Source: a virus. Taken from it: a stretch of DNA of 64,000 bases. The stretch is from IMG/VR virus record IMGVR_UViG_3300046810_000370, positions 1 through 64,000 of that record; one strand, given 5' to 3'. Below the pieces are notes generated by a model that saw only the letters and a list, made by a program, of their open reading frames with translations, was not told the origin of the DNA and made no database searches. Shown piece after piece: positions 23,762-62,291 of the stretch. Both the position numbers and the translations under genes were made by a program. Position 1 is the first letter of the stretch. Every line of letters begins with the position of its first letter.

Positions 23762-23790
23762 CAGGGGCCCCCGTAGGTATGAAGTCGCAT
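23758..23790 (-). CDS. 10-codon leader ORF with the LHT motif
   Basis: ATG (23788-23790) is preceded by AGGAG at 11-base spacing. The frame reads MRLHTYGGPC and stops at a TGA overlapping the TTG start of the RecA-like gene. CTTCATACC (23776-23784) lies in this frame in the same phase as all other copies. It could set up coupled translation of the weak TTG start. Confidence 0.55.
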   Translation of the reverse strand: MRLHTYGGPC

Positions 23791-31347: not shown

Positions 31348-31725
31348 TCAGTACGAGATTCCGTCAACCTGCGAGGGAACCGCCTGACCCAGGCGAGTGG
31401 TGCGACGCTTCGCGTAGCGCTGTGCGTCGGCGTCCGTCTGGTCCTTGCGGACGGACGTCTCGGCGACGTCCTGGTAGACGGTGACCACACGGCGCTCGAC
31501 CGGGTCGATGACGGCTACGAGGTCCCCTCGCACGTGGCGAACCTGTCCAGGAACGCGGCCCGAGGGGTAAGTATGAAGCGGCTTGTTTGCCGCGAGGAGC
31601 ACGTCTTCGCTGGTCCAGCCCTTGGCGGTGGCCTGCTGCTGTGCGTGGTAGGTGAGCCGGAACTCCGGCGCGTCAGTCGCGTTGGCAGCCCAGGCGATGC
31701 CCAGGCATTCGGCGATGGTGGCCAT
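31348..31725 (-). CDS. DUF4258-like protein
   Basis: The ATG at 31723-31725 (MATIAECLGIAWAAN) lies 48 bases downstream of a good -10 box, which rules out the longer frame. FRLTYHAQQQATAKGWTSED, then VLLAANKPLHTYPSGRVPGQ and DLVAVIDPVERRVVTVYQDV match the DUF4258 layout, a small fold related to RelE/BrnT-type ribonuclease toxins. The product is 125 residues. No antitoxin is visible. The LHT copy (CTTCATACT, 31570-31578) is inside the fold. Confidence 0.65.
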   Translation of the reverse strand: MATIAECLGIAWAANATDAPEFRLTYHAQQQATAKGWTSEDVLLAANKPLHTYPSGRVPGQVRHVRGDLVAVIDPVERRVVTVYQDVAETSVRKDQTDADAQRYAKRRTTRLGQAVPSQVDGISY

Positions 31726-33963: not shown

Positions 33964-34150
33964 GTTCGGCCTCCGGCTGGGAGGTCATGTGGAAGCCCTT
34001 GCACGTCGGGCACGGGTAGACGCGGCACGGGACCTTCTCGCGGTCGGCGTCGTGCTTGCGCTGGATGCGCTGCATGTCGAGGACGGCAGCGATCTCGTCT
34101 CGGAATCGGCGCTTGCCGCAGGTATGAAGTCGTCGCTTGTTGTAGGGCAT
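33950..34150 (-). CDS. Small zinc-finger protein
   Basis: The ATG at 34148-34150 starts MPYNKRRLHTCGKRRFRDEI. Cys residues in HTCGK and CRVYPCPTCKGFH form a likely zinc site (66 residues). It shares a base with the primase stop (34150). CTTCATACC (34121-34129) supplies the LHT that borders the first Cys. Nucleic-acid binding is likely; the role is unknown. Confidence 0.6.
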   Translation of the reverse strand: MPYNKRRLHTCGKRRFRDEIAAVLDMQRIQRKHDADREKVPCRVYPCPTCKGFHMTSQPEAEHAGA

Positions 34151-35109
34151 CAGAACCTCGCTATGACGGATGAGTAGGCGTTGCGGACGGCGTTCTTGAG
34201 GGCGTCGGCCCCCATCTCGCCGGGGTCCTTGTAGGGCGCGGTGCCGTAGTCCAGGAACTTCAGAGCCAGGCCTCGGCCGGTCCACTCCTGGCGCAGGCGC
34301 TTGCAGGTCTCGGCGCCCGCGTTGTCGTTGTCGAGCGCGACGATGAGGGTGTCGAAGTGGTCGCGGACCAGGGACATCTGGACGTCGGAGACTCCGGCGC
34401 CGAACGAGGCGAGGCCGGCGGGGAACCCGGCGGCGCGCAGGCGGGCCACGTCCAGAGGGGACTCGACCAGGATGGCCGTGTCGCCCTCGTAGGTATGAAG
34501 CCCGAAGAGCGTCTTCGACTTGGCCATGCCCGGCGGCCGGTTGCGGAAGTAGCGGGCGTTCTTCTCCTGCCAGCCCCACAGCATCCCGGTGTCGGGGTCG
34601 CGGACGGGGATGATCCACATCTCCCGCTCGGCGTCCCACAGGATTCCGCAGGCCTCCGCGTCCTCCGGCATGAAGAAGCGCTTGGAGCACTCCTCCAGCG
34701 GCGGGGTGACGTACAGGGCCAGCGACGCCTCGTTGATCTGCTTGGTCGTGTCGACCGTCTTGGGGTCAGCCTTCTTCGCCAGGAACTTCTTGACCCGCTC
34801 GATCCCGCCGCGCTGGCGGACCCAGGCGACCGCGTCGCCGTACGGGAGGTCGAGCATGTCCTTCACGAGGACGACGAACGGGCCCTGGTACCGGCAGGAG
34901 AAGCAGTTGAAATATCCGGCGTCGTAGTTTATGGAAAAGGATGGGTGCTTGTCTTTCTTTCCGGTCCGCGCCTCGTGCATCGGGCACGGCATGTGAATCT
35001 CGTCGCCGCTGACCTTGTAGTCCAGGCCAATCTCGTCCAGGCAGGCCGTCACGTTGCCGGGAATCGGCGTTCCGACGGCGTCCCAGCCTTTCGCTCTCGC
35101 GGTCCTCAT
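34150..35109 (-). CDS. DnaG-type primase
   Basis: The N-terminal zinc site (MPCPMHEARTGKKDKHPSFS and YFNCFSCRYQG; Cys, His, Cys, Cys) matches CHC2 primases. The TOPRIM fold follows at residues 205-290: TAILVESPLDVARLRAAG (E), then LIVALDNDNAGAETCKRL (DxD). It synthesises RNA primers and would work with the DnaB helicase encoded upstream. It is 319 residues long. CTTCATACC at 34492-34500 (FGLHTYEGDTA) lies just before the TOPRIM Glu. Confidence 0.85.
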   Translation of the reverse strand: MRTARAKGWDAVGTPIPGNVTACLDEIGLDYKVSGDEIHMPCPMHEARTGKKDKHPSFSINYDAGYFNCFSCRYQGPFVVLVKDMLDLPYGDAVAWVRQRGGIERVKKFLAKKADPKTVDTTKQINEASLALYVTPPLEECSKRFFMPEDAEACGILWDAEREMWIIPVRDPDTGMLWGWQEKNARYFRNRPPGMAKSKTLFGLHTYEGDTAILVESPLDVARLRAAGFPAGLASFGAGVSDVQMSLVRDHFDTLIVALDNDNAGAETCKRLRQEWTGRGLALKFLDYGTAPYKDPGEMGADALKNAVRNAYSSVIARF

Positions 35110-35351: not shown

Positions 35352-36594
35352 CGGTGTTCGCCTCGTCCATGGCGAAGGGGTCCTCGTTCAGTTCCTCGAA
35401 CTTGCCGGTCTCCCAGTCCCACTGGCAGTACGTCTCCAGGGGCGGGCAGTTACGGGCCAGGACGACCTTGATCTTGTTGATGTTCGCGTCGTCCGTGGAT
35501 TCGACACCGAGGATGACGTCGGAGTCCTGGGCGAAGGAGGACGAATATCCGATCGAGTCGGAAGTGATGCCCTTCTTCTTGTTCATCTTCCATTCCAGGA
35601 CCTGCGTGGAAATGACGATCGGTATCTGAAGGTTCTTCGCCATGCGCTTGAACCCTCGGGTGAGATTGGTGAGCGCCTGACTGGATCCCTGAGCCTCGCC
35701 GAGTTCGTCCTGCATCATGTAGATGCCGTCCACGAATACGATCGTCGGCCGAATGGCGTCGATCTTCGACTGCACGCCGGTGAGCGTCGTCGCATTCATG
35801 GAGTCCGAGGAGAGGAAGAACGAGGGCATTGCCTCAAGTTCCCGGAGGGCCCTTTCGAGTTTGTCCCACTCGACCTTCTTCAGGGTTCCGTTCCTCAGCC
35901 GGGCGTGGGAAATCCCCGCGCGGATGGCATCGAAACGTTCCTCCTGCTCCTCATTCGACATTTCGAAGCCGATGAAAAGCGGGCGTTCGCCGTACAGGTG
36001 CGCAGCCATGGCGGCCAACAACAGCAGCGTGGACTTGCCGGCCTTCGGCGGGCCGACGAAGGTGACCAACTGCTCCTTCTGGAGGCCCTGGGTGGCCCTG
36101 TCGATCGTGTTGAAGCCGGTGGGTACACCGCGCAGCCCGTCGGGCAGGTCCTTGAGCGTGAGGTACCGGGCGAGGCGTTCCTGGCCGGTCTCCGTCAGGT
36201 CGGTGTCGCGGGCGTTGGGTACGGCCGAGGCGATGGAGGCCAGGGTGCGCGCGAGCGCCTCCATGGCGGCGTTGGCGTTGCCCTCTTCGTGTGCGTCGAC
36301 CGAGTCGGCCAGGCCCTGCTCCAGCAGGGCCAAAGTATGAAGTTCCCGCAGCCGGTCGGTCAGCACGTTCATGCTGTCCTCGACGCGGACGAACTTGTAG
36401 GTGGGGAAGTCGGTCTTGATGGTGGCGAGGGACGGCACCTCGCCGTAGTTGCCCTTGTGCCGCAAGATCGCCTTGAAGACGGCCCGGTTGTCCGGGTCGC
36501 CGAAGAAGTCGGGGGTGATGCCCGCGTCCGCGACAGGTGCCAGGTCCTTGTCCTGGATGACGCGGGAGACGAGCAACCGCTCGAAGTCCGCCAC
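35329..36594 (-). CDS. Replicative DNA helicase, DnaB type
   Basis: Walker A is TFVGPPKAGKSTLLLLAAMA (around residue 185). Walker B is IVFVDGIYMM, and SSSFAQDSDVILGVES plus an Arg near the end fit the RecA-like DnaB core. The N-terminal 110 residues match the DnaB N-domain (ITPDFFGDPDNRAVFKAIL). It unwinds DNA 5'-3' ahead of the fork. The start is GTG sharing a base with the upstream stop. CTTCATACT (36334-36342) encodes RELHTLALLEQ in the linker helix. Confidence 0.9.
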   Translation of the reverse strand: MADFERLLVSRVIQDKDLAPVADAGITPDFFGDPDNRAVFKAILRHKGNYGEVPSLATIKTDFPTYKFVRVEDSMNVLTDRLRELHTLALLEQGLADSVDAHEEGNANAAMEALARTLASIASAVPNARDTDLTETGQERLARYLTLKDLPDGLRGVPTGFNTIDRATQGLQKEQLVTFVGPPKAGKSTLLLLAAMAAHLYGERPLFIGFEMSNEEQEERFDAIRAGISHARLRNGTLKKVEWDKLERALRELEAMPSFFLSSDSMNATTLTGVQSKIDAIRPTIVFVDGIYMMQDELGEAQGSSQALTNLTRGFKRMAKNLQIPIVISTQVLEWKMNKKKGITSDSIGYSSSFAQDSDVILGVESTDDANINKIKVVLARNCPPLETYCQWDWETGKFEELNEDPFAMDEANTDGYVGAF

Positions 36595-37037: not shown

Positions 37038-37279
37038 CAGGTTCGCTCCGCCTCGGCGCGGAGCTGGATATGAAGCCAGTTGCCGCGACGTTCGCGGTGG
37101 GTGTCCCAAGTCCGGACGGTGAACCCGAGGACCCGCGCGGTGTGCATGGCGCGCCAGATCAGGCGCTGGGTTTCGGAGTGGATGGCGCCCCGGCCGGCCA
37201 CGGCCTGGTGGAGTTCCCCTTTGTGGAGAATCACCAAAACCTCGTCCTTGAAGGGGAGGACCAGTTGCTCATGCGGCAC
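37037..37279 (-). CDS. Unknown 80-residue protein
   Basis: MPHEQLVLPFKDEVLVILHK begins a small alpha/beta protein ending GNWLHIQLRAEAERT. The final LHI is the CTTCATATC variant (37067-37075). It overlaps the upstream ATPase by 11 bases and shares a base with the downstream gene. The His residues (HKGELHQ, AIHSETQ, RAMHTARV) could bind metal. No family recognised. Confidence 0.55.
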   Translation of the reverse strand: MPHEQLVLPFKDEVLVILHKGELHQAVAGRGAIHSETQRLIWRAMHTARVLGFTVRTWDTHRERRGNWLHIQLRAEAERT

Positions 37280-37928
37280 GGCGGTCTGCTCCTACCAGGG
37301 TGAGGTGGGTGAAGGCCTCCTGGATGAAGGAGCCCATCGTGGGGTTGTAGATGGCGCCCCACTCCCGGGGCGGGACGTTCGAGGTGACCAGGGTGGGCAA
37401 AGCCTCGCGGTGCCGCTGGCGCAGGAGGGTGTCGAGCAGGCCCTCGGCGTAGCCGGTCTTGGTGCGGTGCTCCTTGCCGACGTCGTCCAGGAGGAGGACG
37501 GGGGCCTTCTCGGCCGCCACGATCTTGTCCTGGATCTCCCACCAGCGGGCGACGGCTTCGGGCTCGTGCCGGTCCTGGAGGCCCATCTTCTCGATGGAGT
37601 CCTTCACGAAGTCGGCGTAGGCCAGCCAGTGGACCGGCAGGCGCTTCTCGAAGTAGACGTCCAGGAGCGTGGCGGTGGCCAGTGAGGTCTTGCCGGTGCC
37701 GGGCGGGCCGACGAACAGCAGCCCCTTGCCGATCTGGGACCAGTCCTTGGGGTACTGGTCCAGCGGGCGCTTGTCGGTGACGTAGTGGTCGCGCAGTTCG
37801 TCGAGCCAGGTCTGGCAGGCGGCGCGCTGGGCAGCGTCCGCCACGGTATGAAGTCGCAGGTGGCGGTAGTGCGCCGGGACGCCGTACTCCTTCAGGCGCA
37901 GGGCGTGGACCCGGGGGTCGGTCGCCAT
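37269..37928 (-). CDS. DnaC-like AAA+ helicase loader
   Basis: Walker A is GLLFVGPPGTGKTSLATATL (residues about 70-80). Walker B is APVLLLDDVGKEHRTKTGYA, and sensor I is PTLVTSNVPPREW. This is the DnaC/IstB pattern, about 219 residues, and it most likely loads the DnaB helicase encoded in the same unit. The promoter at 37967-37995 and an AGGAGG ribosome site precede it. CTTCATACC (37845-37853) encodes RLHTVADA near the N-terminus. Confidence 0.85.
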   Translation of the reverse strand: MATDPRVHALRLKEYGVPAHYRHLRLHTVADAAQRAACQTWLDELRDHYVTDKRPLDQYPKDWSQIGKGLLFVGPPGTGKTSLATATLLDVYFEKRLPVHWLAYADFVKDSIEKMGLQDRHEPEAVARWWEIQDKIVAAEKAPVLLLDDVGKEHRTKTGYAEGLLDTLLRQRHREALPTLVTSNVPPREWGAIYNPTMGSFIQEAFTHLTLVGADRRAA

Positions 37929-38050: not shown

Positions 38051-39031
38051 TCAGGACCAGTAGTCCTCATTGAACCGGTTGTCCTCCATCACGCTGGCGG
38101 CCTTGCCCAGTCGCTGGGCCAGCAGGCCACGGGCTGCGAGGAAGTCCTTCCAGGCGACCACGTTGTCCGAGCGCTGCCAGGAGACCGACCAGTACGTGAT
38201 GATCATCTGGCGGATCTCGTCGCGCCCGGTGCCCTGTGCCATCCACCGGCCGAAGTTGCCGGTGAGCGCAGAGAGGTTGGCGGCTCCCGGCACCGGATGG
38301 CCGACGTCCTTGGCCCGCTGGTCGAAGAACAAGGCCAGCGTCTCTGAAGGCCGCACGGAGCGTGCCTTACGACTTCGCTGGACCGGAGGGGCCAGGTCAT
38401 CATCCGAGGCCGGCACGCGGGCAGCCAGGGACTCTCCCGGATCTTCCGCGTCGAGAGCCTGGGACACCACGTACGCCGGGTCGAGTTCCCGTTCCGCCTG
38501 TTCCCTCTCCAGGGCTTCCTGCTTCCGGGACTTCTTACGGCCGCCACGCTTGGGGGCTGCAACCGCTCCCCAGCCCTTGGAACCCGGCTTGGGAGGGTCT
38601 TCCCCCAGGGCGTCGCCCTGGAGATACGAAGTATCTCTATTACTTCTAGGTTGGTTATTGGGGTTGGGTGAAAACTTCGACACAGGGGGTGCAGAATCTG
38701 CACTGCTGAGGGGTGCAGATTCTGCACTCGCCGGGGCGGAAGGCCACTCCACGACCGGCTTGATGCGCCGGACCACGGACTTGTAGCGCAGGGCCTCCAC
38801 GGGGGCCTCGTCGTCCGGTACGTGCTCGACGATCCCCTGCTCCTCCAGGGCCGCCAGCGACGAGTACGCCTGGCGCTTGGAGACACGGGCCTTGCCCGCG
38901 ATGGTGTCGGCCGACTCCCAGCACATGCGGTGGGTGTCGTTGGCCGCGTCCGCCAGCGCGAGCAGTACGAGCCTTGTAGCCAGTCGGGTATCCGAGTGCG
39001 TGAACACCTCGGACATGATCAGGATGCTCAC
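38051..39031 (-). CDS. Winged-helix replication/regulatory protein
   Basis: The N-terminal 75 residues read as a HTH_36-type winged helix: THSDTRLATRLVLLALADAA, CWESADTIAGKARVSKRQAY, LAALEEQGIVEHV. A long disordered basic linker follows (KRGGRKKSRKQEALEREQAE), and then a C-terminal helical domain of about 100 residues, as in phage replication initiators that bind origin and loader. The GTG start (39029-39031) overlaps the stop of a 15-codon leader ORF. It precedes the DnaC-like gene, so an initiator role is likely but unproved. Confidence 0.7.
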   Translation of the reverse strand: MSILIMSEVFTHSDTRLATRLVLLALADAANDTHRMCWESADTIAGKARVSKRQAYSSLAALEEQGIVEHVPDDEAPVEALRYKSVVRRIKPVVEWPSAPASAESAPLSSADSAPPVSKFSPNPNNQPRSNRDTSYLQGDALGEDPPKPGSKGWGAVAAPKRGGRKKSRKQEALEREQAERELDPAYVVSQALDAEDPGESLAARVPASDDDLAPPVQRSRKARSVRPSETLALFFDQRAKDVGHPVPGAANLSALTGNFGRWMAQGTGRDEIRQMIITYWSVSWQRSDNVVAWKDFLAARGLLAQRLGKAASVMEDNRFNEDYWS

Positions 39032-39075
39032 TCGGCGACTCCGAGGAAGCGATAAGTATGAAGCGATATCGCCAT
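39028..39075 (-). CDS. 15-codon leader ORF with the LHT motif
   Basis: ATG (39073-39075) follows AGGAG with 10-base spacing. The frame reads MAISLHTYRFLGVAE and its TGA overlaps the GTG start of the winged-helix gene. The motif copy is CTTCATACT (39055-39063). Like the leader at 23758-23790, LHT is followed by Tyr. Confidence 0.55.
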   Translation of the reverse strand: MAISLHTYRFLGVAE

Positions 39076-39190: not shown

Positions 39191-40402
39191 TCACTCCGAG
39201 TCGAGTTCGAGGCCCTTCTCCTCGATCTCCGCACGGGTCAGGTGAACCACCTTCGAACCGGCCGGGATCCGGCCACGGCCGCGACGGGCGTAGTTGCCCT
39301 CGTCGTCGACCAGGAACGCGAACGTCTTGGACTCGTCACGCGGACGGCCACGACGCCGGCGCGTGGAGGACTGCTCCTCCTGCTCACCCTCGGACTGCTC
39401 GGCGGCCTCCGGGGCTTCCTGCTTCTGTTCGCCGGTCTGCGGCAGGGTATGAAGCGCCTTGGCCAGCAGTTCCGTCAGCGGTCGCTCGCGTACGTCGGCC
39501 TGGTTGATGACCGCGTTGCGCTCGTCCTCCAGACGGAGCACCTTGTAGGCACCCTCCAAAGCGGCGCGTATCAGGAGCAGGTCGATCTCGGCGTCCGGGA
39601 CCGGCTTGGCGGTCTCCTTCTGCTGCGCCTTGTGCTGCGCGCGGGCGATCGTCTCCTGCAAGGACTCCTGCTCGCTGATGTCCTCCTCGACCGGGGACTC
39701 CTCCGGCTCCGGCTCGGCCTTGCGGCGGGAGCGGCGGGGCTCCGGCTTCGGCTCCTCCTCCTTCGGCTCGTCCTCGGTCAGCGGCTCCTCCTGCGGCTCG
39801 GCAGCCTCGGGCTCGGCACGACGACCGCGACGGCGGCCACGCTTCGGCGCCTCCGCCTCCGCCTCGGGCTCCGGCTCGGGCTCCGGCTCGGGGGCGGGGG
39901 CGGCTTCCGGCTGCTCGGCGAAGGAGATGTCGTCGAGGCCGGCCGTCAGGTCCTTGGCCTTGATGCCGGCCTGCTCGGCGGCGTCCAGGAGGAGTTCGGC
40001 CTCCTCGCTGCCCTCGTCGCCCCACAGGAGGATGACGTGGGCGTCGCCCTGGCTGTCGGCGTTCTTCAGGAGGTCGACGATCCCGGCGGTGACGTTGGCC
40101 GTACGGACGACCTCTTCGGCGTCCGTGAGGATCTTGTCGACCGCGCGGCTCTTCTCGCCGTCGGTGACCGCGATGAACGGGATGTCGGCGTACTCGGACC
40201 ACTCCAGGACGGCCTCCAGGCCGTCGGAGAGGTGCTTCTTGGTGATGGGGAGGATGAGCGTGATCTCGCGCTCGGACGGCTCGGGGTAGCCGTCCGCGTC
40301 GTCGTCGCCGAGACCCACGAAGTCGTTCAGCAGAGCCTTGACGTTCTCGACGTCCGTATCGGCGGAGCCGGCGAACGCGAGGGCGATGGGCTGAGTGCTC
40401 AA
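39191..40402 (-). CDS. Two-domain protein with acidic Glu/Pro linker
   Basis: The TTG start (40400-40402) has GGAG at 5-base spacing. Residues 1-160 form a likely Rossmann-like domain (PIALAFAGSADTDVENVKAL, REITLILPITKKHL, DIPFIAVTDGEK, AHVILLWGDEGSEEAELLLD). Residues 165-260 are low-complexity Glu/Pro/Arg (PEPEPEPEPEAEAEAPKRGR). A charged helical part and an Arg-rich end follow. It has its own promoter and a strong terminator, so it is made separately. The function is unknown; it could organise phage DNA or host factors. CTTCATACC is at 39446-39454. Confidence 0.6.
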   Translation of the reverse strand: MSTQPIALAFAGSADTDVENVKALLNDFVGLGDDDADGYPEPSEREITLILPITKKHLSDGLEAVLEWSEYADIPFIAVTDGEKSRAVDKILTDAEEVVRTANVTAGIVDLLKNADSQGDAHVILLWGDEGSEEAELLLDAAEQAGIKAKDLTAGLDDISFAEQPEAAPAPEPEPEPEPEAEAEAPKRGRRRGRRAEPEAAEPQEEPLTEDEPKEEEPKPEPRRSRRKAEPEPEESPVEEDISEQESLQETIARAQHKAQQKETAKPVPDAEIDLLLIRAALEGAYKVLRLEDERNAVINQADVRERPLTELLAKALHTLPQTGEQKQEAPEAAEQSEGEQEEQSSTRRRRGRPRDESKTFAFLVDDEGNYARRGRGRIPAGSKVVHLTRAEIEEKGLELDSE

Positions 40403-40451
40403 GTCTGCTCCAGGTGTGTGGTGTGTGCCGCCCTGATCGGCGACGAGTGAG

Positions 40452-40480
40452 ACGTTACCGGTTATCGCTTCTAAATGCAA
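40452..40480 (-). promoter_or_regulatory. Promoter for the EP-rich protein gene
   Basis: TTGCAT (40475-40480) and TAACGT (40452-40457) are 17 bases apart, starting 4 bases after the terminator stem at 40484-40506. Confidence 0.6.
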
Positions 40481-40808: not shown

Positions 40809-41348
40809 TCAGATCGACCTCGTACCGAGCCCGTTGACCTTCGGCAGCACGATCGTGGAGGCCGCAGGCGGGCTGACGCGGTTCTCGACGACACGCTTCT
40901 CCATGACCCGCCGCACGGCGTCCTCCACACTCCGGGAGATCTGCTCGACGACCTCCTCGCCCAGCAGCGTGCCGCCCGCCGGGGTCTCGGTGACCTGCGT
41001 CTCCTCTACGTACCGGGCGATGGTGCCCGGCGAGATATGAAGCCGGCTCTCCGTCTCGGTTACGAGGGTGTTCTGGAGCGTGGCGAACCACGCGTACTTC
41101 TTGAGCAGCGAGTGGTAGAAGGTCGTGCCGGTCACCCATGCCAGGAAGGCGGCCACGACAGCCGGCGCCCAGTAGAAGTGCTGCGGCTCGGCCTGGTGGA
41201 CCGCCCAGAAGCCTGTGGCGACCGAGAGGGCGGCGTGCGCGATCCCCTTGACCGTGGGGTTGGTGGACGGCCGGGTGAACAGGGCGACGATGGCGGGCAG
41301 GACCAGGCCGACGACGAGGGATGCCGCGCCGGCGTAGTTGCTGAACAT
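40809..41348 (-). CDS. Membrane protein with cytoplasmic tail, holin candidate
   Basis: The ATG at 41346-41348 (MFSNYAGAASLVVGLVLPAI) starts a first membrane helix. HAALSVATGFWAV and FYWAPAVVAAFLAWVTGTTF follow, then a 100-residue soluble region (LLKKYAWFATLQNTLVTETE, ISRSVEDAVRRVMEKRVV). The 179-residue layout, with a long charged tail, resembles phage holins of actinophages. CTTCATATC at 41034-41042 (SRLHISPG) is in the tail. Confidence 0.5.
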   Translation of the reverse strand: MFSNYAGAASLVVGLVLPAIVALFTRPSTNPTVKGIAHAALSVATGFWAVHQAEPQHFYWAPAVVAAFLAWVTGTTFYHSLLKKYAWFATLQNTLVTETESRLHISPGTIARYVEETQVTETPAGGTLLGEEVVEQISRSVEDAVRRVMEKRVVENRVSPPAASTIVLPKVNGLGTRSI

Positions 41349-50400: not shown

Positions 50401-51741
50401 TAGCCGGTCGCCCGTGATCGAGCCCGCCAGGATCTGCGTAGCCGTCAGCGTTCCGGCGGTGATCTTCGAGGCGTCCAGCGATCCGGTCGCGATGCGCGCG
50501 GCGTTGAGCGTACCGACGTTGATCTTGCCCGCGTCGAGGTCGGCGATCTTGGCGTTGTTGATGGCCGCGTCGGCGATCTGCGCGTTACCGATGGCGCCGT
50601 TGATGATCTTCGCCGAGCCGATCGTGGCGTCGGCCATCTGCGCGCCGGTCACTGCGTTGTTGGCGATGTTCGTGGTGCCGACGGCCAGGGCCGCCAGCTT
50701 GCCTGCCTCGACAGCACCGTTGGCTATGTTCGCGGCCAGGACGGCGTTCGCCGCCAACTTGGTGTTGTCGATGGCGCCGACCGCGATCTTCGCTGCCGTC
50801 AGTGCCCCGTCGAGGATGTCCTGGGCGAGGGCCTGCTTGGGCGTGGCCGAGTTCGAGCCGGAGGGGGCCGAGGCGACGCCGACCTTGGAGTAGGCGATCA
50901 GCCGGTAGTAGTAGGCGTTGGCGTAGTTCTGGATGGAGTCGTACAGGAAGTCCTGACGGGGCAACGTCCCGATCACCACAGGGTTGGTGAACCCCACGAC
51001 GGTGTCCCGCTGCACCTGCACGTGGGAGAAGATCGCGGGCATCGCCGTGCCGGTGCTGTCCCTGCCGTCCCAGGTGACCCGCAGGCCTCCGAGTACGCCG
51101 AGGACCGCCGGGGCGGAAGGCACGGGCGGCGGGGTCGTGGACGACGCGGACGTGATGTGCGCGGAGGCCCACAGAGAGACGTTGCTGGAGTTGTCGACTG
51201 CCTGTACGCGGACCGTGACGTCCGCGCCGGTATGAAGTCCGTCTAGGACAACGAGCGTGTCCTTTGTGCTGAGTCCTCCGGACCAGTTGTTGCCGTCATA
51301 GGAGAACTGGAGGAGGTAGTGGGACAGGTCGGTGAGGTTGGTCCCGTCCTGGTTCTCCGTCGGCGCGGTCCAGCCTGCCGTCACGCGGGCCTGCGTCGCC
51401 CCCTCGTCGGTGACGTACTGCACCGTGGTGAGGTTGAGCGCGGTCGGCTCCTTGGGCGGCAGCGCGTCGAGGCCGGTGGGCAGGTCACCGACTGCGTCCT
51501 GGACGGCCTTGATGCCGAGCGGCGAGTAGACCGGCTTGGTGATGTCTCCGCCGGAGAACTGCACCCACAGCGTCTGGCCGGTCGCCGGCACCGTGTTGGT
51601 CGGGGATGACGGAACCGCCCAGGCGCTCTCGGCGCTGCCCAAGACCTGCGGTATCAGCATCGTCACCCGCGCCTCATTCAGCGGGTCCTGGTTATTGGCG
51701 ACGCTACCCCGGTACATTCCGAGGCACGGCTCAGCCGACAT
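47476..51741 (-). CDS. Giant tail spike/central fibre: gp5-like base, FN3 domains, repeat stalk
   Basis: The 1421-residue protein starts with an OB-like gp5/gpV domain (LGMYRGSVANNQDPLNEARV, LWVQFSGGDITKPVYSPLG). FN3-type domains follow (residues 100-300). Residues 300-545 form a stalk of short degenerate repeats (GAIDNTKLAANAVLAANIAN, GTLTATQILAGSITGDRLAA) and a Thr/Ser-Ala run (ATSATTATSATSATSATSAG). The C-terminal 850 residues are beta-rich, likely glycan-binding. It would attach to the hub encoded just upstream. CTTCATACC (51229-51237, DGLHTGAD) lies in the first FN3. Confidence 0.8.
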   Translation of the reverse strand: MSAEPCLGMYRGSVANNQDPLNEARVTMLIPQVLGSAESAWAVPSSPTNTVPATGQTLWVQFSGGDITKPVYSPLGIKAVQDAVGDLPTGLDALPPKEPTALNLTTVQYVTDEGATQARVTAGWTAPTENQDGTNLTDLSHYLLQFSYDGNNWSGGLSTKDTLVVLDGLHTGADVTVRVQAVDNSSNVSLWASAHITSASSTTPPPVPSAPAVLGVLGGLRVTWDGRDSTGTAMPAIFSHVQVQRDTVVGFTNPVVIGTLPRQDFLYDSIQNYANAYYYRLIAYSKVGVASAPSGSNSATPKQALAQDILDGALTAAKIAVGAIDNTKLAANAVLAANIANGAVEAGKLAALAVGTTNIANNAVTGAQMADATIGSAKIINGAIGNAQIADAAINNAKIADLDAGKINVGTLNAARIATGSLDASKITAGTLTATQILAGSITGDRLAANTITANQIAANTITANQMAAGTITAQSGVIASIDASKITVGKLSASQIDATNLVVTGGNVNGTVASATSATTATSATSATSATSAGTVTGSIGAGVSVPAGQLSNGTIPTTTTINGGSIKTGTIDASLASITNLDASSITAGTLTVDKFSAGLQGLVGQKFYDFGTNASKWRNNAGAGGTISSVSKTDAASGGFVMRCAGYVQGAYRPDLLIPFDPTVTYRVTCRVRQVSDNSTPGTNQNFYAGVTGIASDGVTLVNITGANSVSSQHYVAAKGVPLTTGGPWVTYTGYIKGVAATPTGSSTANNPTAPATLHQNVKYISPCLYLNYSGGSGAAEMDMFTIEVVETGQVNSTNINLGNVNAQHLSLGSVTGNLVTNGGFEDVARPGWTLTQSDNTLVTTAAKIEIGQGGYPARSGQGKLALGVNNTGTATATSDPFTVVAGDVYMLRYWYYGIGHLHVTFETSPDKVTWTDMLASANDVTYNSASYTEDIFEGIIPTGALYGRVTFQQLNPGSYGLSTTSFSYICVDDVLVMREGYGATDISAGGVRLYGPDGMLQTELTSTNAHATFAAGAASIDPNGVGTFNSIFTPIRPDTATSDDPTGQIWYQGKELSDLLWNMPWGIVTYERGWTNKPTSTTYYTTDTGLIELAFTAVEGRMYRIIARSQFDFNGGTGNQVLECRINVAGTTTSLNGCTLVNPNGASPRVTDTTIARNFGMYYDGGGTDGTTVVEGIITCSADAGGLYSSTTALAPGDHRILWAATQHSGNATGWGLRNYIPAQSSDFYVEDVGPALPENGVYNTGGAAVTATKTYTKTYKATWSRRFGNAGYSDGTMYQGYYSGTWGTNKSMVGFGTQPFTDMGSTAKVSKVEVYLYANHWYYNAGGTAHIGVHTQVSAPTSSASTNNLTVANWPVGAGKWVTLPSSWNSTWNAATPYRGITLGGDLGSSTNKTYYGAFDGFGDSHPPQLKITYTK

Positions 51742-52879: not shown

Positions 52880-53144
52880 TGGGGATCCTGACGATCAGGC
52901 CCGGGGTGATGACCGTCCAGTCCATGACCTCGGGGTTGGCGTCGGCGATGTGCCACCACATGCGTGCGTCGCCGTAGTGCTGCCGGGCGAGCAGGTCGAT
53001 GCGGTCGGCCGAGGTCAACTGGTGGTAGGTGAAGTTGAAACTCCACTCGCGCTGCTGGCCCGGTACGACGGTCAGGTTCGTGCCCCGGCTGGACGCGACG
53101 AGGGTCAGGTTGGAGTCCGCGTACCGTGAGTTGTTGGTGATCAC
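52872..53144 (-). CDS. LysM-like baseplate/tail protein (gp53/gpX-like)
   Basis: The GTG at 53142-53144 overlaps the upstream stop (GTGA). The 90 residues read VITNNSRYADSNLTLVASSR and then YHQLTSADRIDLLARQHYGD and ARMWWHIADANPEVMD. These match the LysM-type domain of P2 gpX and T4 gp53, with the NP turn. It links hub and tube. Confidence 0.75.
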   Translation of the reverse strand: MITNNSRYADSNLTLVASSRGTNLTVVPGQQREWSFNFTYHQLTSADRIDLLARQHYGDARMWWHIADANPEVMDWTVITPGLIVRIPSV

Positions 53145-53944
53145 CGGCCGCCCTTTCCGCTCTTGGCGGCCTGCTGGGAGGCAGACAGTGGGTCGCCCCA
53201 GTTCGAGGCGCGGGGGCCGATGAATCCGGGCTTGGCCTCGTACCGGTTGCCGCCCGTCGGGGTCGGCAGCAGCGTCACGGTGATCGTGACCTGGCAGCGG
53301 GAGGGGATCATCTCCTGGGTCCAGTGGGTGTACTGGAGGTCCAGCGACTGGATGACGCCGTAGTAGGCCAGCGACGTGCCGATCACGACGTACACCGGTA
53401 CGTAGGTCATGGGGCCGGCTGGACCGTTGGTGTACTTGCCCTTGTTGAACGCTTCCTTGAAGGCGTCCGCGTCGGCGCTGTTGTCGTCGGTCACCGGCAT
53501 CGGAGTGGCGATACCGGTGATCTTGTAGAGGGAGAGGATGTCGTAGGCCACGCCGAAGAACGGCACCATCGTTGCCGCCTCGCCATACAGTTTCGACGGG
53601 TCCCACAGTTCGTAGGTCCGGTCGAAGAGCAGGCTGAAGGTCAGCGACTGCTGGAGAGGCAGCAGCGTCTGTCCGGCGGTGACGTCGTTCTTGTCGACCG
53701 CGTTCGGGTCGGACAGGACGTTGGCGTCGATGCCGTGGGAGATGTTGATGGTGCTCGGGTTGTAGAGGAAGTTGCACCGCTGGCGGGCGCCGTTTACCGG
53801 CTTCTCCTGGATGATGAATCCACGGGTCAACTTCTTTCCGCCCGAGCCCGTCACCCAGTCGGTTCCGCCAAGATTCTGCGTGAACGGAATCGAGGTGATC
53901 CGAGGGTCGAAGGGTCCGTTGTCGACGATCTTGCTGGCAGCCAT
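53141..53944 (-). CDS. Tail/baseplate protein
   Basis: The ATG at 53942-53944 (MAASKIVDNGPFDPRITSIP) shares a base with the stop of a 10-codon mini-ORF. A longer frame from TTG 53957-53959 would run through that mini-ORF. The protein is beta-rich (NFLYNPSTINISHGIDANVL, LTFSLLFDRTYELWDPSKLY), as in tail tube-initiator or gp48/gp54-like proteins that connect tape measure and hub. It is 267 residues. The LysM-like protein follows by four-base overlap. Confidence 0.65.
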   Translation of the reverse strand: MAASKIVDNGPFDPRITSIPFTQNLGGTDWVTGSGGKKLTRGFIIQEKPVNGARQRCNFLYNPSTINISHGIDANVLSDPNAVDKNDVTAGQTLLPLQQSLTFSLLFDRTYELWDPSKLYGEAATMVPFFGVAYDILSLYKITGIATPMPVTDDNSADADAFKEAFNKGKYTNGPAGPMTYVPVYVVIGTSLAYYGVIQSLDLQYTHWTQEMIPSRCQVTITVTLLPTPTGGNRYEAKPGFIGPRASNWGDPLSASQQAAKSGKGGR

Positions 53945-53976
53945 TACTCGGCCGCCCAAGTATGAAGTCGGTTCAT
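53944..53976 (-). CDS. 10-codon mini-ORF with the LHT motif between tape measure and tail gene
   Basis: MNRLHTWAAE begins at an ATG sharing one base with the tape measure stop (TAATG). It ends at a TAA sharing one base with the next ATG (TAATG). It thus exactly fills the gap between the two genes. The motif is CTTCATACT (53959-53967). The AGGT before its ATG is a modest ribosome site. Confidence 0.55.
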   Translation of the reverse strand: MNRLHTWAAE

Positions 53977-56900
53977 TAGTTACCTGCCGCGATGAGGTTG
54001 ATTCGGTTGTCCTCGGCGATGGCCGTCATGATCTGCTGCGCAGCATCACGGGCGGACTGGGAGTCCATGGAGCCCTGCACCTTGACGGTGATGGCGCCGG
54101 CGTTGAAGTGCAGGGTGGCCGCACCACCCTTGGTATGAAGCCCGCTGACGCTGGACATGGCGTTGTTCCCGGCCAGGACGCTACGGATGGCCTCGGCCTG
54201 GAAGGCGGGGATGATCATCTCGCCCTTGTGGATGCGGGCCGTCTGGTCGACGTCCACGTTGGTGGAGCCGACCGCGTACCCCTTGTAGCCGCCACCGTTG
54301 TTCATGCTCTTGATGCCTGGGACGTTCGCGAGCGACCCGTATCTCGAATCCGCGTAGCGCACACCGGCGATTATGTTGTCGACCGGGTTCCAGATGTCCT
54401 TGTGACCCTTGATCGAGTAGTGATTGAACGTGGAGTCGATGGTCTGCATAATGCCCTTGGACGGATGACCGGCCTTGGCATTCGAGTCCCAGTTGTTGAT
54501 CGCCTTGGGGTTGCCGGCGGACTCGTGCTGGATCATCGTGTTGACGATCCGCTCATTGGACTTCGAGTCCTTCTTGATGATTCCCAGGGCGGTCTTAATC
54601 CACGTCGCGACGCTTCCCTTGGGCATCGCGCCGGAAGGTGCGCCGTTGTCCGAGGAGTCCTTCGAACCCTGGCCGGAGCCCACGCCGGAACCGACGTTGG
54701 CCGCGCCGATCGAGGAGACGCCGGCCGCGATGGCGTCGACTTCCTCGGTGGACCCGTAGGCGCCGACGTCTCCGCCGAAGCCCATGGTGGACAGGCGATT
54801 GTCGCCGGAGCCGGCCTGGTTCTCGCCGTCCCCGCCGGTGATGTCGCCGAGGTTGCCGACCGCACCCAACACCCGCACGGCGTTGGTGAACTCGCCCGGC
54901 TTGAAGGACCGCACGCGGACGTTGGCACCCGTGTGGGGCGCCTCGATGATCCTCCCGTTACCGATGCACATCACGACGTGGTGCGCAGGGTTGCCGTTGA
55001 AGAGCAGGTCGCCCGCGCGGACGTCGCTGAGTTTGACCTTCTTCCCGGCCTTCTGCTGCTGCGCGGCCGTACGGGGAAGGGAGACGCCGATCTGCCGGAA
55101 GGAGTACATCAGCAAGCCCGAGCAGTCGAAGCCCGTCTTCGGGCTGGCGCCACCCCACTTGTACGGGGTGCCCAGGTACTTCATCGCGATCTTGATGACG
55201 GCAGCAGCCGTCTTGCCCGCGCCCTGCGTACCCGTCGCCTTCACGCTGGAATTGCCCGTGCCGCTGGCCGCAGCCGGACCACCCGAAGCACCGCCCGCAC
55301 CACCGAAGGCGCCGAAGGCACCGATGCCCGCACCGATCACACCACCGACGGCAGCACCGATACCGGTACCGATGACCGGGACGACGGAGCCGATCGCGGC
55401 ACCGGTCAGCGCACCCGTGCCAGCGTCCACGGCCACGTGGCCCCACTTGTTGCCAGTCGAGCCCTTCTTGCTGACCTTGTCGACCAACTGACCGCCGAAG
55501 TGGTGAGTGCCCAACGCGGCAACGCCGAAGACGCCGGCAGTGCCCAAGGCAGCGGCGGACAGGTCAAGTGCACCGGCCGCACCAGCACCTCCCAGTGCGC
55601 CTCGGGCGGCGCCCAGGAGGCCGCCTCCGCTGCTGCCGCCCATGCCGGCGAGGCGGCCGACCGAAGCCAGACCGCGCATCGTGCCGTACGCGCCGATGCC
55701 GGTGCCGATGCTGGAGCCCAGCACGGATCCCGCGCCACCACCCCAACCCATGGCGTCGGACACATGCAGCGTCTTGAGGACGCTCTGAAGCCCGGTGGAG
55801 AACATGTCCAGGTACTTCGTCGCGGTCTGGAGTCCGCTGGTGAAGCCGTCGTTCTCGTTGACGTCCTGGTTGCGCAGGGTTCCCGCGCGGGTCATCAGGG
55901 TGTTGGCGGTCGAGCCACCTATCCCCCACTTGCCCAACTGGCCCTGGGCGGAGTTCTTCGCCCCCTGGGTCTTGCCGTTGTCACGCTGGTTGGCGGTGCT
56001 GACGTAGGCCTGGGCAGACGCCCCGTGGGTCTGCGCGAGCATCATGCCCTTGAGTTCGCCCTTGACCAGTTCGAGGGTCTTGGGGTCCATGCTCCGGGCG
56101 AGGGAGACCATGACACCGGAGTTCGGGTTGTCGAGCGTCCCGGATATCTGCTCAGGCGTCTTGATGCTCTTCAGCGACGGCCACCGCTGGAGGACCTGCT
56201 GGGCGATCTGTCGCGGGGTCTGCTTCTGCCCGCTCTTGATCGTCTGAATGCCGATGGCCTGGTTGGAGTAGTACGAGCCGGCGGTCCACGCTGCGGCCGT
56301 GCCCTGAGCACGCGCCTGCTCGGACATCCCCGGGTTCATGTAGCCCGAGGTGCCCTTGACGTAGTTCCACTGCTGGTTGAAGGAGGACGAGCCCGACGAC
56401 AGGCCGGTCCGGCCCAGGGTGCTGTAGGCCTGCCCGGCGTCCTGGGTGGACTGCGCGGTGAAGTTGTTCTTGAAGGCCTGGTCCCGCAGCGTGTGCCAGG
56501 ACGAGGAGGAGCCCTGTGCCGCCTGGTAGGCGGTGGACTGCATCGTGACCTGGTCGGGCAGGATCTTCTGGCCCCACGAAACGACCCCGGTCAGGCCCTT
56601 CTTGAGGGTGTACTGCGAGGGACGGCCGCCGTTGTTGCCGGAGCCACCGCCGAGCCGTGGGGTGTTCGTGCCACCGCCACCGCCGTTGGTGCTGCCCTGG
56701 CCGCCGTTGTTGGTCGCACCGCCGCCCTGCGAGCCGGTGCCGGAGAAGGTGGCACCGCCACCGTTGCCGTTGCCAGCAGGTGTTCCGGTGCGCCCCTGGC
56801 CGCCGTTGGACCGACCGTGGGCGTAGTTGCTGGTGCCGTTCCACACGTCGCCGACGGCCAGGCCCAGGCCACGGGAGCGGGACATGTTCCCGACTCCGGT

Positions 56901-57023
56901 GTTGACGCCCTTGAGACCCTTGTTCAGGTCGTTGATGGTGCGCGTAAGGGCAGAGATCGCGTCCTGGGCGTTGTTCCAACCCAGGAGCGGTCCCTGCCCC
57001 GCTGCACTACTGCTACTAGCCAT
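53976..57023 (-). CDS. Tape measure protein with NlpC/P60 and transglycosylase domains
   Basis: The ATG at 57021-57023 (MASSSSAAGQGPLLGWNNAQ) overlaps the frameshifted chaperone end. The 1015 residues are Gly/Ser/Ala-rich, with a glycine-zipper-like hydrophobic stretch near residue 550. Around residue 630 the motif YKWGGASPKTGFDCSGL (catalytic Cys) and HHVVM (His) mark NlpC/P60. Around 830 IQHESAGNPKAINNW and GIMQTIDSTF mark an SLT transglycosylase. Two wall hydrolases in one tape measure should open the thick cell wall at entry. CTTCATACC is at 54132-54140. Confidence 0.9.
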   Translation of the reverse strand: MASSSSAAGQGPLLGWNNAQDAISALTRTINDLNKGLKGVNTGVGNMSRSRGLGLAVGDVWNGTSNYAHGRSNGGQGRTGTPAGNGNGGGATFSGTGSQGGGATNNGGQGSTNGGGGGTNTPRLGGGSGNNGGRPSQYTLKKGLTGVVSWGQKILPDQVTMQSTAYQAAQGSSSSWHTLRDQAFKNNFTAQSTQDAGQAYSTLGRTGLSSGSSSFNQQWNYVKGTSGYMNPGMSEQARAQGTAAAWTAGSYYSNQAIGIQTIKSGQKQTPRQIAQQVLQRWPSLKSIKTPEQISGTLDNPNSGVMVSLARSMDPKTLELVKGELKGMMLAQTHGASAQAYVSTANQRDNGKTQGAKNSAQGQLGKWGIGGSTANTLMTRAGTLRNQDVNENDGFTSGLQTATKYLDMFSTGLQSVLKTLHVSDAMGWGGGAGSVLGSSIGTGIGAYGTMRGLASVGRLAGMGGSSGGGLLGAARGALGGAGAAGALDLSAAALGTAGVFGVAALGTHHFGGQLVDKVSKKGSTGNKWGHVAVDAGTGALTGAAIGSVVPVIGTGIGAAVGGVIGAGIGAFGAFGGAGGASGGPAAASGTGNSSVKATGTQGAGKTAAAVIKIAMKYLGTPYKWGGASPKTGFDCSGLLMYSFRQIGVSLPRTAAQQQKAGKKVKLSDVRAGDLLFNGNPAHHVVMCIGNGRIIEAPHTGANVRVRSFKPGEFTNAVRVLGAVGNLGDITGGDGENQAGSGDNRLSTMGFGGDVGAYGSTEEVDAIAAGVSSIGAANVGSGVGSGQGSKDSSDNGAPSGAMPKGSVATWIKTALGIIKKDSKSNERIVNTMIQHESAGNPKAINNWDSNAKAGHPSKGIMQTIDSTFNHYSIKGHKDIWNPVDNIIAGVRYADSRYGSLANVPGIKSMNNGGGYKGYAVGSTNVDVDQTARIHKGEMIIPAFQAEAIRSVLAGNNAMSSVSGLHTKGGAATLHFNAGAITVKVQGSMDSQSARDAAQQIMTAIAEDNRINLIAAGN

Positions 57024-57213
57024 TCTCCGCCTCAGCAATTCGCCTATGTCGCTGCGCCCTGAACCACTTCACCCAGTGAAGACGCTCGCGCACGGTCAAC
57101 CGGCGAATCTCGCTGAGGCTCCACGCCGGACTTAGTTCGACTAGTTGCTCGTATTCGAAGTACGTGTCGTGGTAGTTACAGGCCCTGAAACAGGTCCCCG
57201 GCTCCGATGAAGA
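57016..57213 (-). CDS. Frameshift extension of the tail assembly chaperone
   Basis: This 65-codon stretch (SSSEPGTCFRACNYHDTYFE ... RIAEAENG) is open in the +1 phase relative to the upstream gene, has no good start of its own, and ends just inside the tape measure start. A +1 slip at the CCCCC run (57214-57218) would join it to 275 residues of the upstream protein, giving a 340-residue fusion. Tail assembly genes before tape measures commonly do this. Confidence 0.65.
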   Translation of the reverse strand, partial: SSSEPGTCFRACNYHDTYFEYEQLVELSPAWSLSEIRRLTVRERLHWVKWFRAQRHRRIAEAENG

Positions 57214-58039
57214 GGGGGACCTCCTTTCCGCACGAATCGTGCGTGAACTTGACCTTATTGTACTGAGGGCCGGGCTGCTTTTCCTCAATGGTGTCGAGGA
57301 TGCGCTGACGGTCGAGGATGCCCATCGAGCGGGCAAAGTCCGGGTTTCCCGTGACGGCGATTTCGCTGCCGTCCGCCTCGACCACGGAAATGAGAACACG
57401 GGAAAGCAGGAGGGTGTTCTGCTCGGAATCCGTGGTGCGGTCGACGATGGCGAGGATCGCCTCCTGGTCGGCGCCGATGGGGAGACGGACGAACGCCTTG
57501 CGGCCCTTGCGCAGTTCGACCTCGAAGACACGCTGGGCGGGGTCGTCCAGGCGCCGGATCGGGATCTCGTCGAGGGTGACGGACAGCCGGAACTCCTCGC
57601 CGCAGTGCGGGCAGGAGTACATGTCCCAGACGATCTCGTCGCCGTACGTCGCGCGCCGGATCTCCAGGAGCAGCATGTCGCGGTCGCCGAGGAGCAGGTT
57701 GTTGAGCAGGCCGGGGCCGGACTTCTCGTCGCCGACGGAGACCGTGCCGCTGGCGAGCAGGGTGGAGATGAACTTGCCGATGCCGCCGTTGCGGGCCTTG
57801 GCGATGGCCTCCTCATCGGCGCCGGTCAGTTCCCGGACCTCCGCGTCGTAGCGTGCGTTGTCGAGGTCGCCACCCGAAACGTAGCCTCCCGGCAGGCGGA
57901 ACTGGCCACCTGCCGGGAGGGCGATCTCGGGCTTAGCGACCTCGGCACCCTCGGAGAGCAGCCGCGAAATGGCGGCATTCGCTGCGCCAGGATTGGAGAG
58001 AGGGCTGGAGAACCCCTCGGTATGAAGGTCGTTAGCCAC
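57176..58039 (-). CDS. Tail assembly chaperone-like protein (zero-frame product)
   Basis: The 287-residue protein sits between tube and tape measure, the normal place for tail chaperones. It has a Cys pair (MYSCPHCGEEFRLSVTLDEI) and a later Cys (THDSCGKEVPLFIG), suggesting a zinc site. The N-terminus MANDLHTEGFSSPLSNPGAA carries CTTCATACC at residues 5-7 (58019-58027). The zero frame ends LFIGAGDLFQGL; a +1 shift near codon 275 extends it. T4-like baseplate (gp26-type) function is an alternative. Confidence 0.65.
   Translation of the reverse strand: MANDLHTEGFSSPLSNPGAANAAISRLLSEGAEVAKPEIALPAGGQFRLPGGYVSGGDLDNARYDAEVRELTGADEEAIAKARNGGIGKFISTLLASGTVSVGDEKSGPGLLNNLLLGDRDMLLLEIRRATYGDEIVWDMYSCPHCGEEFRLSVTLDEIPIRRLDDPAQRVFEVELRKGRKAFVRLPIGADQEAILAIVDRTTDSEQNTLLLSRVLISVVEADGSEIAVTGNPDFARSMGILDRQRILDTIEEKQPGPQYNKVKFTHDSCGKEVPLFIGAGDLFQGL
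57214..57227 (-). promoter_or_regulatory. Candidate programmed +1 ribosomal frameshift site
   Basis: On the transcript a perfect internal ribosome-binding sequence AAAGGAGGT (57219-57227) runs straight into CCCCC (57214-57218). In the zero frame it reads AAG GAG GTC CCC CTC; the Pro tRNA on CCC can re-pair one base forward on CCC. An internal SD two bases before the slip codon is the arrangement known from the prfB +1 site. The zero-frame stop comes 12 codons later. Confidence 0.65.
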
Positions 58040-61476: not shown

Positions 61477-62291
61477 CAGAAGCCCCATCCGCCGTAGATG
61501 GGCGAGGGCACCCCGGACTCGTCGTCGTTCTGGTGGCCGGGGCCGATGGGCGGGAGCACCCGCTGCGGCAGGGAGTGGTCGTCGTACTCGCGCTCGCGGA
61601 AGATGGGCACGAGCCGGCCGGTCGTACGCGAGACACGGCGGAGGTTGGTGACCTCGATCGAGTACAGGCCGACGCCCAACTTCTCGCACAGCGTCTTGTA
61701 CCGCTCGGTGAGCATGCCGATCTGAGTCTGGATCTGAGCGAAGCGCTGGCCCCGGTCGACGGACGTGCCGTCGGAGGTCTGCACGTTGATGTCGGTCGCC
61801 GCGTCCGTGGACAGTGCCCACATGGCTTCGGTCGTGGCCAGCAGGACGACCAGCGCGTCCTCCTCCGGCGGCAGGTTGTCGACGCCGACCGGTGCCTCGT
61901 CGTACCTGATGAAGCCGTTGCTGTCCTTGTACCGGGTGGAGATGGTCCGGCCCCGGTTGTGCTGGGCGACGGCGTCGTTGATGTAGATGTCCAACTCATC
62001 GTCGGAGAACAGGCCGTAGGACGCGCCGGACACCAGCAGCAGCGCATCGAGCGCCAGCGGCTGGGTCAGGTCGAGGATCCCGTTCAGTTCGTCCAGGACG
62101 AAGTCGGTGGGGGTGCTCAGCGTGGTCTGCGAGCCCCCCGAGATATGAAGCACTTCCACGCCGGTCACGTTGTTCGCGCTCAGTTCGTACTGAACGACGT
62201 CCCCTGTGCCCCGGATGGTGTCGCGGAACGGCTGGAGCCGGTCGCCCAGCTCGCTGCGTACCCGCGTCCGCAGGTCTTCGAGAGTAGCCAT
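61476..62291 (-). CDS. Head completion/neck protein candidate
   Basis: The ATG at 62289-62291 (MATLEDLRTRVRSELGDRLQ) is chosen over the longer frame. The 271 residues have helices at both ends and DELDIYINDAVAQHNRGRTI in the middle, recalling gp15/HK97 gp6-like connectors (DLRxxVR... DxxIxxxIxxA). CTTCATATC (62142-62150) encodes VEVLHISGG. It lies between the small beta protein gene and the connector candidate. Confidence 0.5.
   Translation of the reverse strand: MATLEDLRTRVRSELGDRLQPFRDTIRGTGDVVQYELSANNVTGVEVLHISGGSQTTLSTPTDFVLDELNGILDLTQPLALDALLLVSGASYGLFSDDELDIYINDAVAQHNRGRTISTRYKDSNGFIRYDEAPVGVDNLPPEEDALVVLLATTEAMWALSTDAATDINVQTSDGTSVDRGQRFAQIQTQIGMLTERYKTLCEKLGVGLYSIEVTNLRRVSRTTGRLVPIFREREYDDHSLPQRVLPPIGPGHQNDDESGVPSPIYGGWGF

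What the first reader, a model, noticed from the sequence alone, without database searches (positions are those of the whole stretch)
53944..53976. Ten-codon mini-gene with the motif wedged by TAATG overlaps between tape measure and tail gene
The tape measure stop shares one base with the mini-ORF ATG, and the mini-ORF stop shares one base with the next ATG. MNRLHTWAAE therefore behaves as a complete cistron in a chain of coupled genes. Structural genes near it normally abut directly, so the insert looks like a motif-bearing unit placed at a gene border.
Basis: seen in the sequence. Interest (0 to 1): 0.75.

Follow-up and report, generated by a model that had tools for sequence, protein, structure and literature searches.

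The report
In-frame translated codon tag across phage
A phage family marks dozens of its genes with the same three-codon phrase, always in the reading frame and sometimes in a tiny extra gene made to carry it; the phrase may be where the phage's own RNA-cutting enzyme acts, though no experiment has tested that.

Summary
The 10-codon ORF MNRLHTWAAE* (53976-53944, minus strand) is real, with TAATG overlaps at both ends. Relatives show clean presence/absence: plain TAATGG in some, 31-32 or 86 extra bases in others. Its content is one copy of a genome-wide signal: CTTCATA[CT] occurs 32 times on the window's coding strand and never on the other.

In 4 relatives of the same type all 150 gene-located copies read CTT-CAT-AYN (Leu-His-Thr/Ile). 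Sister phages carry CTT-AAT-AYN at the same gene positions, 112 of 112 in frame. The two types are interleaved in the tail-sheath tree, so the sites switched together, more than once. Copies outside called genes sit in short leader ORFs: 36/41 have an in-frame start and 21/41 also a stop overlapping the next start, against 0/41 for both in either other frame. So the signal has to be translated.

The gene that best separates the two types among 117 families is a HicA-like protein with the conserved GNH histidine and no HicB found, whose own last codons carry the motif. Best explanation: ribosome-coupled cleavage or repression by this protein at CUU-NAU-AYN, regulating the phage's own genes much as T4 RegB does. 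The translated, lineage-recoded signal is shown; the HicA link is correlative; cleavage is inferred.

The parts
53944..53976 (-). leader mini-ORF MNRLHTWAAE*, start overlapping the tape-measure stop and stop overlapping the next start (TAATG twice)
   Evidence: presence/absence in relatives
53960..53967 (-). motif copy CTT-CAT-AC(T) inside the mini-ORF
53976..57038 (-). tape-measure protein (1020 aa); also carries a motif copy at 54133-54140 near its 3' end
53141..53944 (-). gene downstream of the mini-ORF, weak match to contractile tube protein (CIS_tube, E=7e-4, below cut-off); no internal motif copy in nine genomes checked
39028..39075 (-). leader ORF MAISLHTYRFLGVAE* upstream of the replication-initiation-like gene (stop overlaps next start by 4); conserved in C-type G017, G021, G010; MPSRLNINGGFGAAE* in A-type G014
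23758..23790 (-). leader ORF MRLHTYGGPC* upstream of the UvsX-like recombinase gene (stop overlaps next start by 4)
62143..62150 (-). motif copy CTT-CAT-AT(C), LHI
58020..58027 (-). motif copy in T4-type baseplate hub gene, codon 5 (LNT in A-type)
54133..54140 (-). motif copy in tape-measure gene (LNT in A-type)
51230..51237 (-). motif copy in 1421-aa tail protein gene (LNT in A-type)
41035..41042 (-). motif copy, LHI
39447..39454 (-). motif copy in gene 39191-40480 (LNT in A-type)
39056..39063 (-). motif copy in 15-aa leader ORF
37846..37853 (-). motif copy in AAA ATPase (helicase-loader-like) gene (LNT in A-type)
37068..37075 (-). motif copy, LHI
36335..36342 (-). motif copy in DnaB helicase gene (A-type G014 has CAG-CAC-ACC)
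34493..34500 (-). motif copy in primase gene (A-type G014 has TTG-CAC-ACC)
34122..34129 (-). motif copy near the start of a short gene (MPYNKRRLHTCGKR)
31571..31578 (-). motif copy in gene 31348-31833
30651..30658 (-). motif copy in gene 30299-30760 (LNT in A-type)
29909..29916 (-). motif copy in gene 29257-30252 (LNT in A-type)
29127..29134 (-). motif copy in DNA polymerase A gene, near its start (LNT in A-type)
26564..26571 (-). motif copy (LNT in A-type G014, absent in the other C-type records compared)
25666..25673 (-). motif copy in class II ribonucleotide reductase, GAR-LHT-FGG (LNT in A-type, LKT in outgroup)
24823..24830 (-). motif copy in the same reductase, ESG-LHT-KHA; apparently gained within the C type (G010 LHP, A-type LHQ, outgroup IHP)
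23777..23784 (-). motif copy in 10-aa leader ORF
22590..22597 (-). motif copy 6 codons before the end of the UvsX-like gene
19353..19360 (-). motif copy in RNA ligase gene
17386..17393 (-). motif copy near the end of the dNMP kinase gene (LNT in A-type)
13886..13893 (-). motif copy near the end of gene 13852-15111 (LNT in A-type)
12613..12620 (-). motif copy in endolysin gene
11978..11985 (-). motif copy
11013..11020 (-). motif copy in gene 10679-11068 (LNT in A-type)
9433..9440 (-). motif copy LHI (LNI in A-type)
7653..7660 (-). motif copy in gene 7160-8125
6846..6853 (-). motif copy LHM in queuine tRNA-ribosyltransferase-like gene (LNM in A-type)
5326..5333 (-). motif copy in an ORF of about 100 aa (LNT in A-type)

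Best explanation
The mini-ORF is a leader cistron whose purpose is to have the codons CUU-CAU-AYN translated just upstream of, and coupled to, a gene that has no such phrase of its own. The phrase is a genome-wide, frame-locked mRNA tag (about 30-46 copies in the long records) in a group of myoviruses distantly related to the virulent Streptomyces phage BRock. Shown: the tag is real, read in frame, held by selection on the nucleotides themselves, and exists in two exclusive versions, CUU-CAU-AYN and CUU-AAU-AYN, that switch together across the genome. When it is active, mRNA is cut, or ribosomes are blocked, at the tag, which silences the tagged gene; for leader ORFs it silences the coupled gene downstream. 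The HicA-like gene carries the tag in its own last codons, so it would limit itself. The likely role is timed shut-off of the phage's own genes (replication, nucleotide metabolism, recombination, baseplate, lysis), as T4 RegB does for early genes.
For: Frame: C-type 150/150 and A-type 112/112 gene-located copies in frame 0; codon usage alone would give about 0.1 copies and, for the C type, about 11 times more in the other frames. Synonymous constraint: third bases of both tag codons identical in 25/26 orthologous sites against 72% for flanking codons of identical residues, G017 v G010. Outside called genes: 36/41 sites have an in-frame ATG/GTG within 60 bases and 21/41 also a stop overlapping the next gene start; in the two other frames 6 and 1 have starts and 0 have both; conserved 10-aa and 15-aa leaders. 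Leader switch: MRLHTW.. in C-type, MRLNTW.. in A-type G024. Types interleaved in the sheath tree. HicA link: all 12 loci with the C version of the protein have the CAT tag and all 11 with the A version have the AAT tag, apart from single stray CTTCATA[CT] matches; it is the best separator of types among 117 families, only 8 of which separate them at all. HicA identity: PF07927 best E 5e-5, found for 7/14 members; PHROG 353 'toxin' 14/14; predicted helix-3 strands-helix; top PDB fold match 1whz, with HicA 6g26 and 4c26 also in the list; GNH invariant. HicA genes end in CTT-CAT-ATC/ACG or CTT-AAT-ACC/CTC. Sites are biased to the 5' part of genes (179 of 328 in the first three tenths). E. [quoted passage not shown]
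Against: No cleavage data exist. The HicA link is correlation; seven other families also separate the types, less sharply. The HicA match is below Pfam's cut-off, the model is of middling confidence (pLDDT 71) and no fold match reaches E 0.001. The window's own contig ends before the HicA-like gene, so it is seen only in relatives. HicA was first described as translation-independent. Some late structural genes are tagged too (tape measure, baseplate hub), so a pure early shut-off role is doubtful. A distant HicA-like protein (L123/G031, 46%) occurs without this tag.
Confidence: 0.5

Rival explanations
1. The tag is a decoding signal: the ribosome itself pauses at CUU-NAU-AYN in its E, P and A sites because of special or limiting tRNAs (phage tRNA-Asn or tRNA-His, possibly queuosine-modified), and the pause regulates coupled genes without any nuclease.
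For: The signal spans three codons in frame and switches between a His and an Asn codon. The phages encode tRNA-Asn, and three C-type records also an unusual 86-base tRNA-His. A queuine tRNA-ribosyltransferase-like gene is present, and queuosine sits in tRNAs that read NAU codons (own knowledge).
Against: C-type G010 and G011 lack the tRNA-His and all sampled A-types keep tRNA-Asn, as do the C-types. Synonyms CAC/AAC are not used at the sites, and a base preference at position -1 points to nucleic-acid recognition rather than tRNA supply alone.
Confidence: 0.15
2. The HicA-like protein, or another RNA-binding protein, binds the tag as a repressor or localiser without cutting.
For: Same correlation with type; no antitoxin found, so an active nuclease would be costly.
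Against: Catalytic histidine and upstream glycine are invariant in all 14 members; plain RNA binding does not explain why the motif must be in frame and translated.
Confidence: 0.15
3. The motif is a DNA site, like the stoperators of cluster A mycobacteriophages, bound by a lineage-specific repressor that stops transcription.
For: Asymmetric site, about 30-46 per genome, oriented with transcription, with lineage-specific variants, as in PMC6550527.
Against: Frame lock in the C type, where other frames are free of stops and favoured by codon usage; start codons and coupled stops around non-genic copies; nearest isolate BRock is reported virulent with no lysogeny genes (PMC7453282). No gene tracks the type better than HicA.
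Confidence: 0.07
4. The mini-ORF and its motif are a mobile or chance insert of no function.
For: Clean presence/absence at this border.
Against: Leaders differ in length and sequence but keep start, motif frame and coupling; an A-type leader has AAT in place of CAT; 32 copies on one strand against 0 on the other.
Confidence: 0.01

Closest known systems
T4 RegB endoribonuclease and its GGAG sites
   Same: Small phage-encoded toxin-fold RNase that inactivates the phage's own mRNAs at a short motif, cuts its own mRNA, has no described antitoxin and probably works on ribosomes (PMC3014915).
   Different: RegB resembles RelE/YoeB and cuts mainly in Shine-Dalgarno sequences between genes; here the motif is three codons long, frame-locked and inside ORFs, with leader ORFs that carry it and two lineage-specific spellings.
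HicA toxins of HicAB systems, including phage Adephagia gp91
   Same: Helix-3 strands-helix RNase with glycine-histidine active site; E. coli HicA cuts before the first codon position (PMC8546651; PMC11373665).
   Different: No HicB found (HicB_lk family searched in five records); the genome is full of copies of a putative target instead of avoiding it.
Cluster A mycobacteriophage stoperators
   Same: Dozens of asymmetric sites oriented with transcription; variants differ between related lineages together with their reader (PMC6550527).
   Different: Those are DNA sites read by a DNA-binding repressor; here the site lies in a translated frame.
Start-associated sequences of cluster K mycobacteriophages
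   Same: Short repeated sequence tied to translation starts in a phage genome (mentioned in PMC11373665).
   Different: Those lie upstream of start codons; these lie in ORFs as codons.

Membership tests
HicA mRNA interferase | Pfam PF07927 above curated cut-off | tested here: not met
   Best E 5e-5 in 7 of 14 members; G017 protein 17.8 bits against cut-off 27
HicA mRNA interferase | helix-strand-strand-strand-helix fold | tested here: inconclusive
   Predicted order H-E-E-E-H, pLDDT 70.9; best PDB match 1whz, HicA chains ranks 4, 5 and 9, no match below E 0.001
HicA mRNA interferase | catalytic histidine with upstream glycine | tested here: met
   G40 G41 N42 H43 invariant in 14 sequences; residue roles from PMC11373665
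HicA mRNA interferase | HicB antitoxin partner | tested here: not met
   PF15919 absent in five records; other HicB families not searched
HicA mRNA interferase | RNA cleavage | not testable with these tools
   needs experiment
RegB-like shut-off system | RelE/YoeB-fold nuclease acting at GGAG | tested here: not met
   Candidate is HicA-like and the motif is CUU-NAU-AYN
Stoperator system | sites in DNA irrespective of reading frame | tested here: not met
   150/150 and 112/112 in frame 0
Stoperator system | oriented with transcription, lineage-specific variants | tested here: met
Mobile element | copies alike beyond the motif | tested here: not met
   Flanks of the 27 copies show no shared sequence beyond weak preferences next to the motif

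The most novel reading that the evidence does not exclude
A phage regulon written in codons: a three-codon phrase, valid only when translated, marks dozens of genes for a phage HicA-like nuclease; genes without the phrase get a leader mini-gene to carry it; and related phages use mutually exclusive spellings (CAU or AAU) matched to their version of the nuclease.
Probability: 0.5. Interest if true: 0.93.

Novelty: categorically new. Interest (0 to 1): 0.88.

Why it matters
I found no described system in which a short phrase of codons, valid only in the translated frame, is spread through a genome and given its own mini-genes. It would show that mRNA interferases can act as dedicated regulators of a self regulon with a frame-dependent code, and it offers a natural test of how HicA reads mRNA on the ribosome, an open point since PMC8546651. 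The paired spellings and nuclease versions give ready-made specificity swaps, and the tag would predict regulated genes in soil actinophages from sequence alone.

Tried and rejected
Search for the 21-base element around the motif: a single copy, so the repeat is only the octamer. Sequencing or assembly artefact: rejected, since both types occur in the same sample sets (e.g. L013 C-type and L014 A-type, both 3300046648) and the sites are codon-framed. Phage tRNA-His as the cause of the CAT type: rejected, C-type G010 and G011 lack it. Insertion or hopping element: rejected, sites inside genes are substitutions at unchanged length. Relatives of the HicA-like protein in named phages: none. Hosts through bacterial genomes: no useful hit. 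PDB search by sequence profile: only repeat-protein noise. Joining contig L109 to the window's phage: 93% overlap only, so not the same phage.

Full report
Observation. The sequence at 53944-53976 is as described: tape-measure stop TAA 53978-53976, ATG 53976, codons M N R L H T W A A E, TAA 53946-53944, next ATG 53944. The motif in it is CTTCATAC, present 27 times on the minus strand and never on the plus strand of the window, with 0.27 expected; with CTTCATA[CT] there are 32. My gene calls put every gene in the window on the minus strand.

Frame. The window copies inside genes read CTT-CAT-AC/AT, i.e. Leu-His-Thr/Ile/Met. LHT in my first set of called genes is encoded 20 times as CTT CAT ACY and once as CTG CAC ACC, though CTG and CAC are the common codons. 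Over four C-type records (G017, G021, G010, G020) 150 of 150 gene-located copies are in frame 0, where codon usage predicts 0.09, 0.09 and 0.92 copies in the three frames; CTTAATAY, CTTGATAY and CTTTATAY are not enriched.

Relatives. Sheath search gave 57 loci from IMG/VR. Some carry the motif and others, with sheath identities of 80-87% to the window, carry none but have CTTAATACC, equally one-sided. In four A-type records 112 of 112 copies are in frame as Leu-Asn-Thr/Ile/Met. At the same gene positions the C type has CAT and the A type AAT. A distant relative (G018) has unrelated codons there, for example LKT for LHT in ribonucleotide reductase, and no enriched motif. In the sheath tree A and C groups are interleaved, so the whole set changed together more than once, or tail genes were exchanged and the sites then reset. 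Third bases of both tag codons are identical in 25 of 26 orthologous sites against 72% in flanking codons of identical residues (G017 v G010).

Leader ORFs. Copies outside called genes lie in short ORFs: MNRLHTWAAE* here, MAISLHTYRFLGVAE* before the replication-initiation-like gene and MRLHTYGGPC* before the UvsX-like gene, conserved in relatives; VRRLNT*, VVRLNT* and MKTIRLHT* are as short as 6-8 codons. Of 41 such sites, 36 have an in-frame ATG/GTG within 60 bases (6 and 1 in the other frames) and 21 have both a start and a stop overlapping the next gene's start (0 in either other frame). At the tape-measure border the leader is present as 9, 10 or 28 codons or absent, leaving TAATGG or TGATGG; G017 and G003, 95% identical in the downstream protein, differ by its presence; A-type G024 has MRLNTWVAV* where C-type L023 has MRLHTWAVA*. 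The downstream gene has no internal copy in any of nine genomes.

Which gene reads it. Comparing 117 ortholog families, 8 separate the A and C types perfectly by identity and the sharpest is a 69-97 aa protein (59% lowest coverage-weighted identity within C, 71% within A, at most 42% between). All 12 loci found with its C version have the CAT tag, all 11 with its A version the AAT tag; the A-type loci other than G014 also show one stray CTTCATA[CT] match. It resembles HicA toxins, keeps GNH in all members and carries the tag, or in some A-type loci CTT-AAT-CTC, in its own last codons. No HicB_lk antitoxin was found. The gene lies about 18 kb from the sheath gene, beyond the end of the window's 65.9-kb contig, so it was seen only in relatives.

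Mechanism. Shown: a nucleotide-level, frame-locked, translated signal with two lineage spellings, used also in dedicated leader ORFs. This fits the report that E. coli HicA cuts with strong bias before the first codon position and that ribosome-dependent toxins cut near the 5' ends of mRNAs (PMC8546651); here 179 of 328 sites lie in the first three tenths of genes. Inferred with less certainty: the purpose is shut-off of phage genes. In the window 26 of 32 copies lie in the 34.5 kb of replication, nucleotide, recombination and lysis genes and 6 in the 24.5 kb of mostly structural genes. T4 RegB is the nearest working parallel (PMC3014915).

Limits. No expression data. Gene calls are my own simple scoring. 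The isolates nearest to this group are Streptomyces phages such as BRock (sheath 47%); BRock, the one I checked, lacks the tag.

Noticed in passing
G031 (L148-L152), HicA-like protein at L123:10001-10195: A more distant phage with a 46% HicA-like protein lacks CTTNATAY but is rich in the codon pair CTT-CTA (46 seen, 2.4 expected), CTTCTAG being in frame 0 in 26 of 28 genic copies; possibly a third spelling, though codon-pair avoidance could also produce such bias.
   Followed up: partly
G017 tRNA region (L071:1737-1822), L078:9573-9658, G020:28973-29058: An 86-base tRNA with His anticodon GTG, a G before position 1 and C73, but a long variable arm like Leu/Ser tRNAs, near tRNA-Asn in some C-type phages only.
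   Followed up: partly
window 5594-7132 (-): Queuine tRNA-ribosyltransferase-like gene (PHROG 887); queuosine affects NAU codons, the middle codon of the tag.
   Followed up: no
G017:88188-88346 (+) and equivalents: Nearly every C-type or A-type record that covers it has a single motif copy on the opposite strand; where genes were called it is mostly in frame in a gene of that orientation, so the site follows gene direction.
   Followed up: partly
window 36594-37109 (-), orthologs G017|85 and G010|141: A 147-171 aa protein of unknown family is the second-best separator of the two tag types.
   Followed up: no
G017, G014 and G031 coding sequences: Codon pair CAG-TTG is about 9 times over-represented in G017 and G014 (7 times in G031), perhaps avoidance of CAGCTG.
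   Followed up: no
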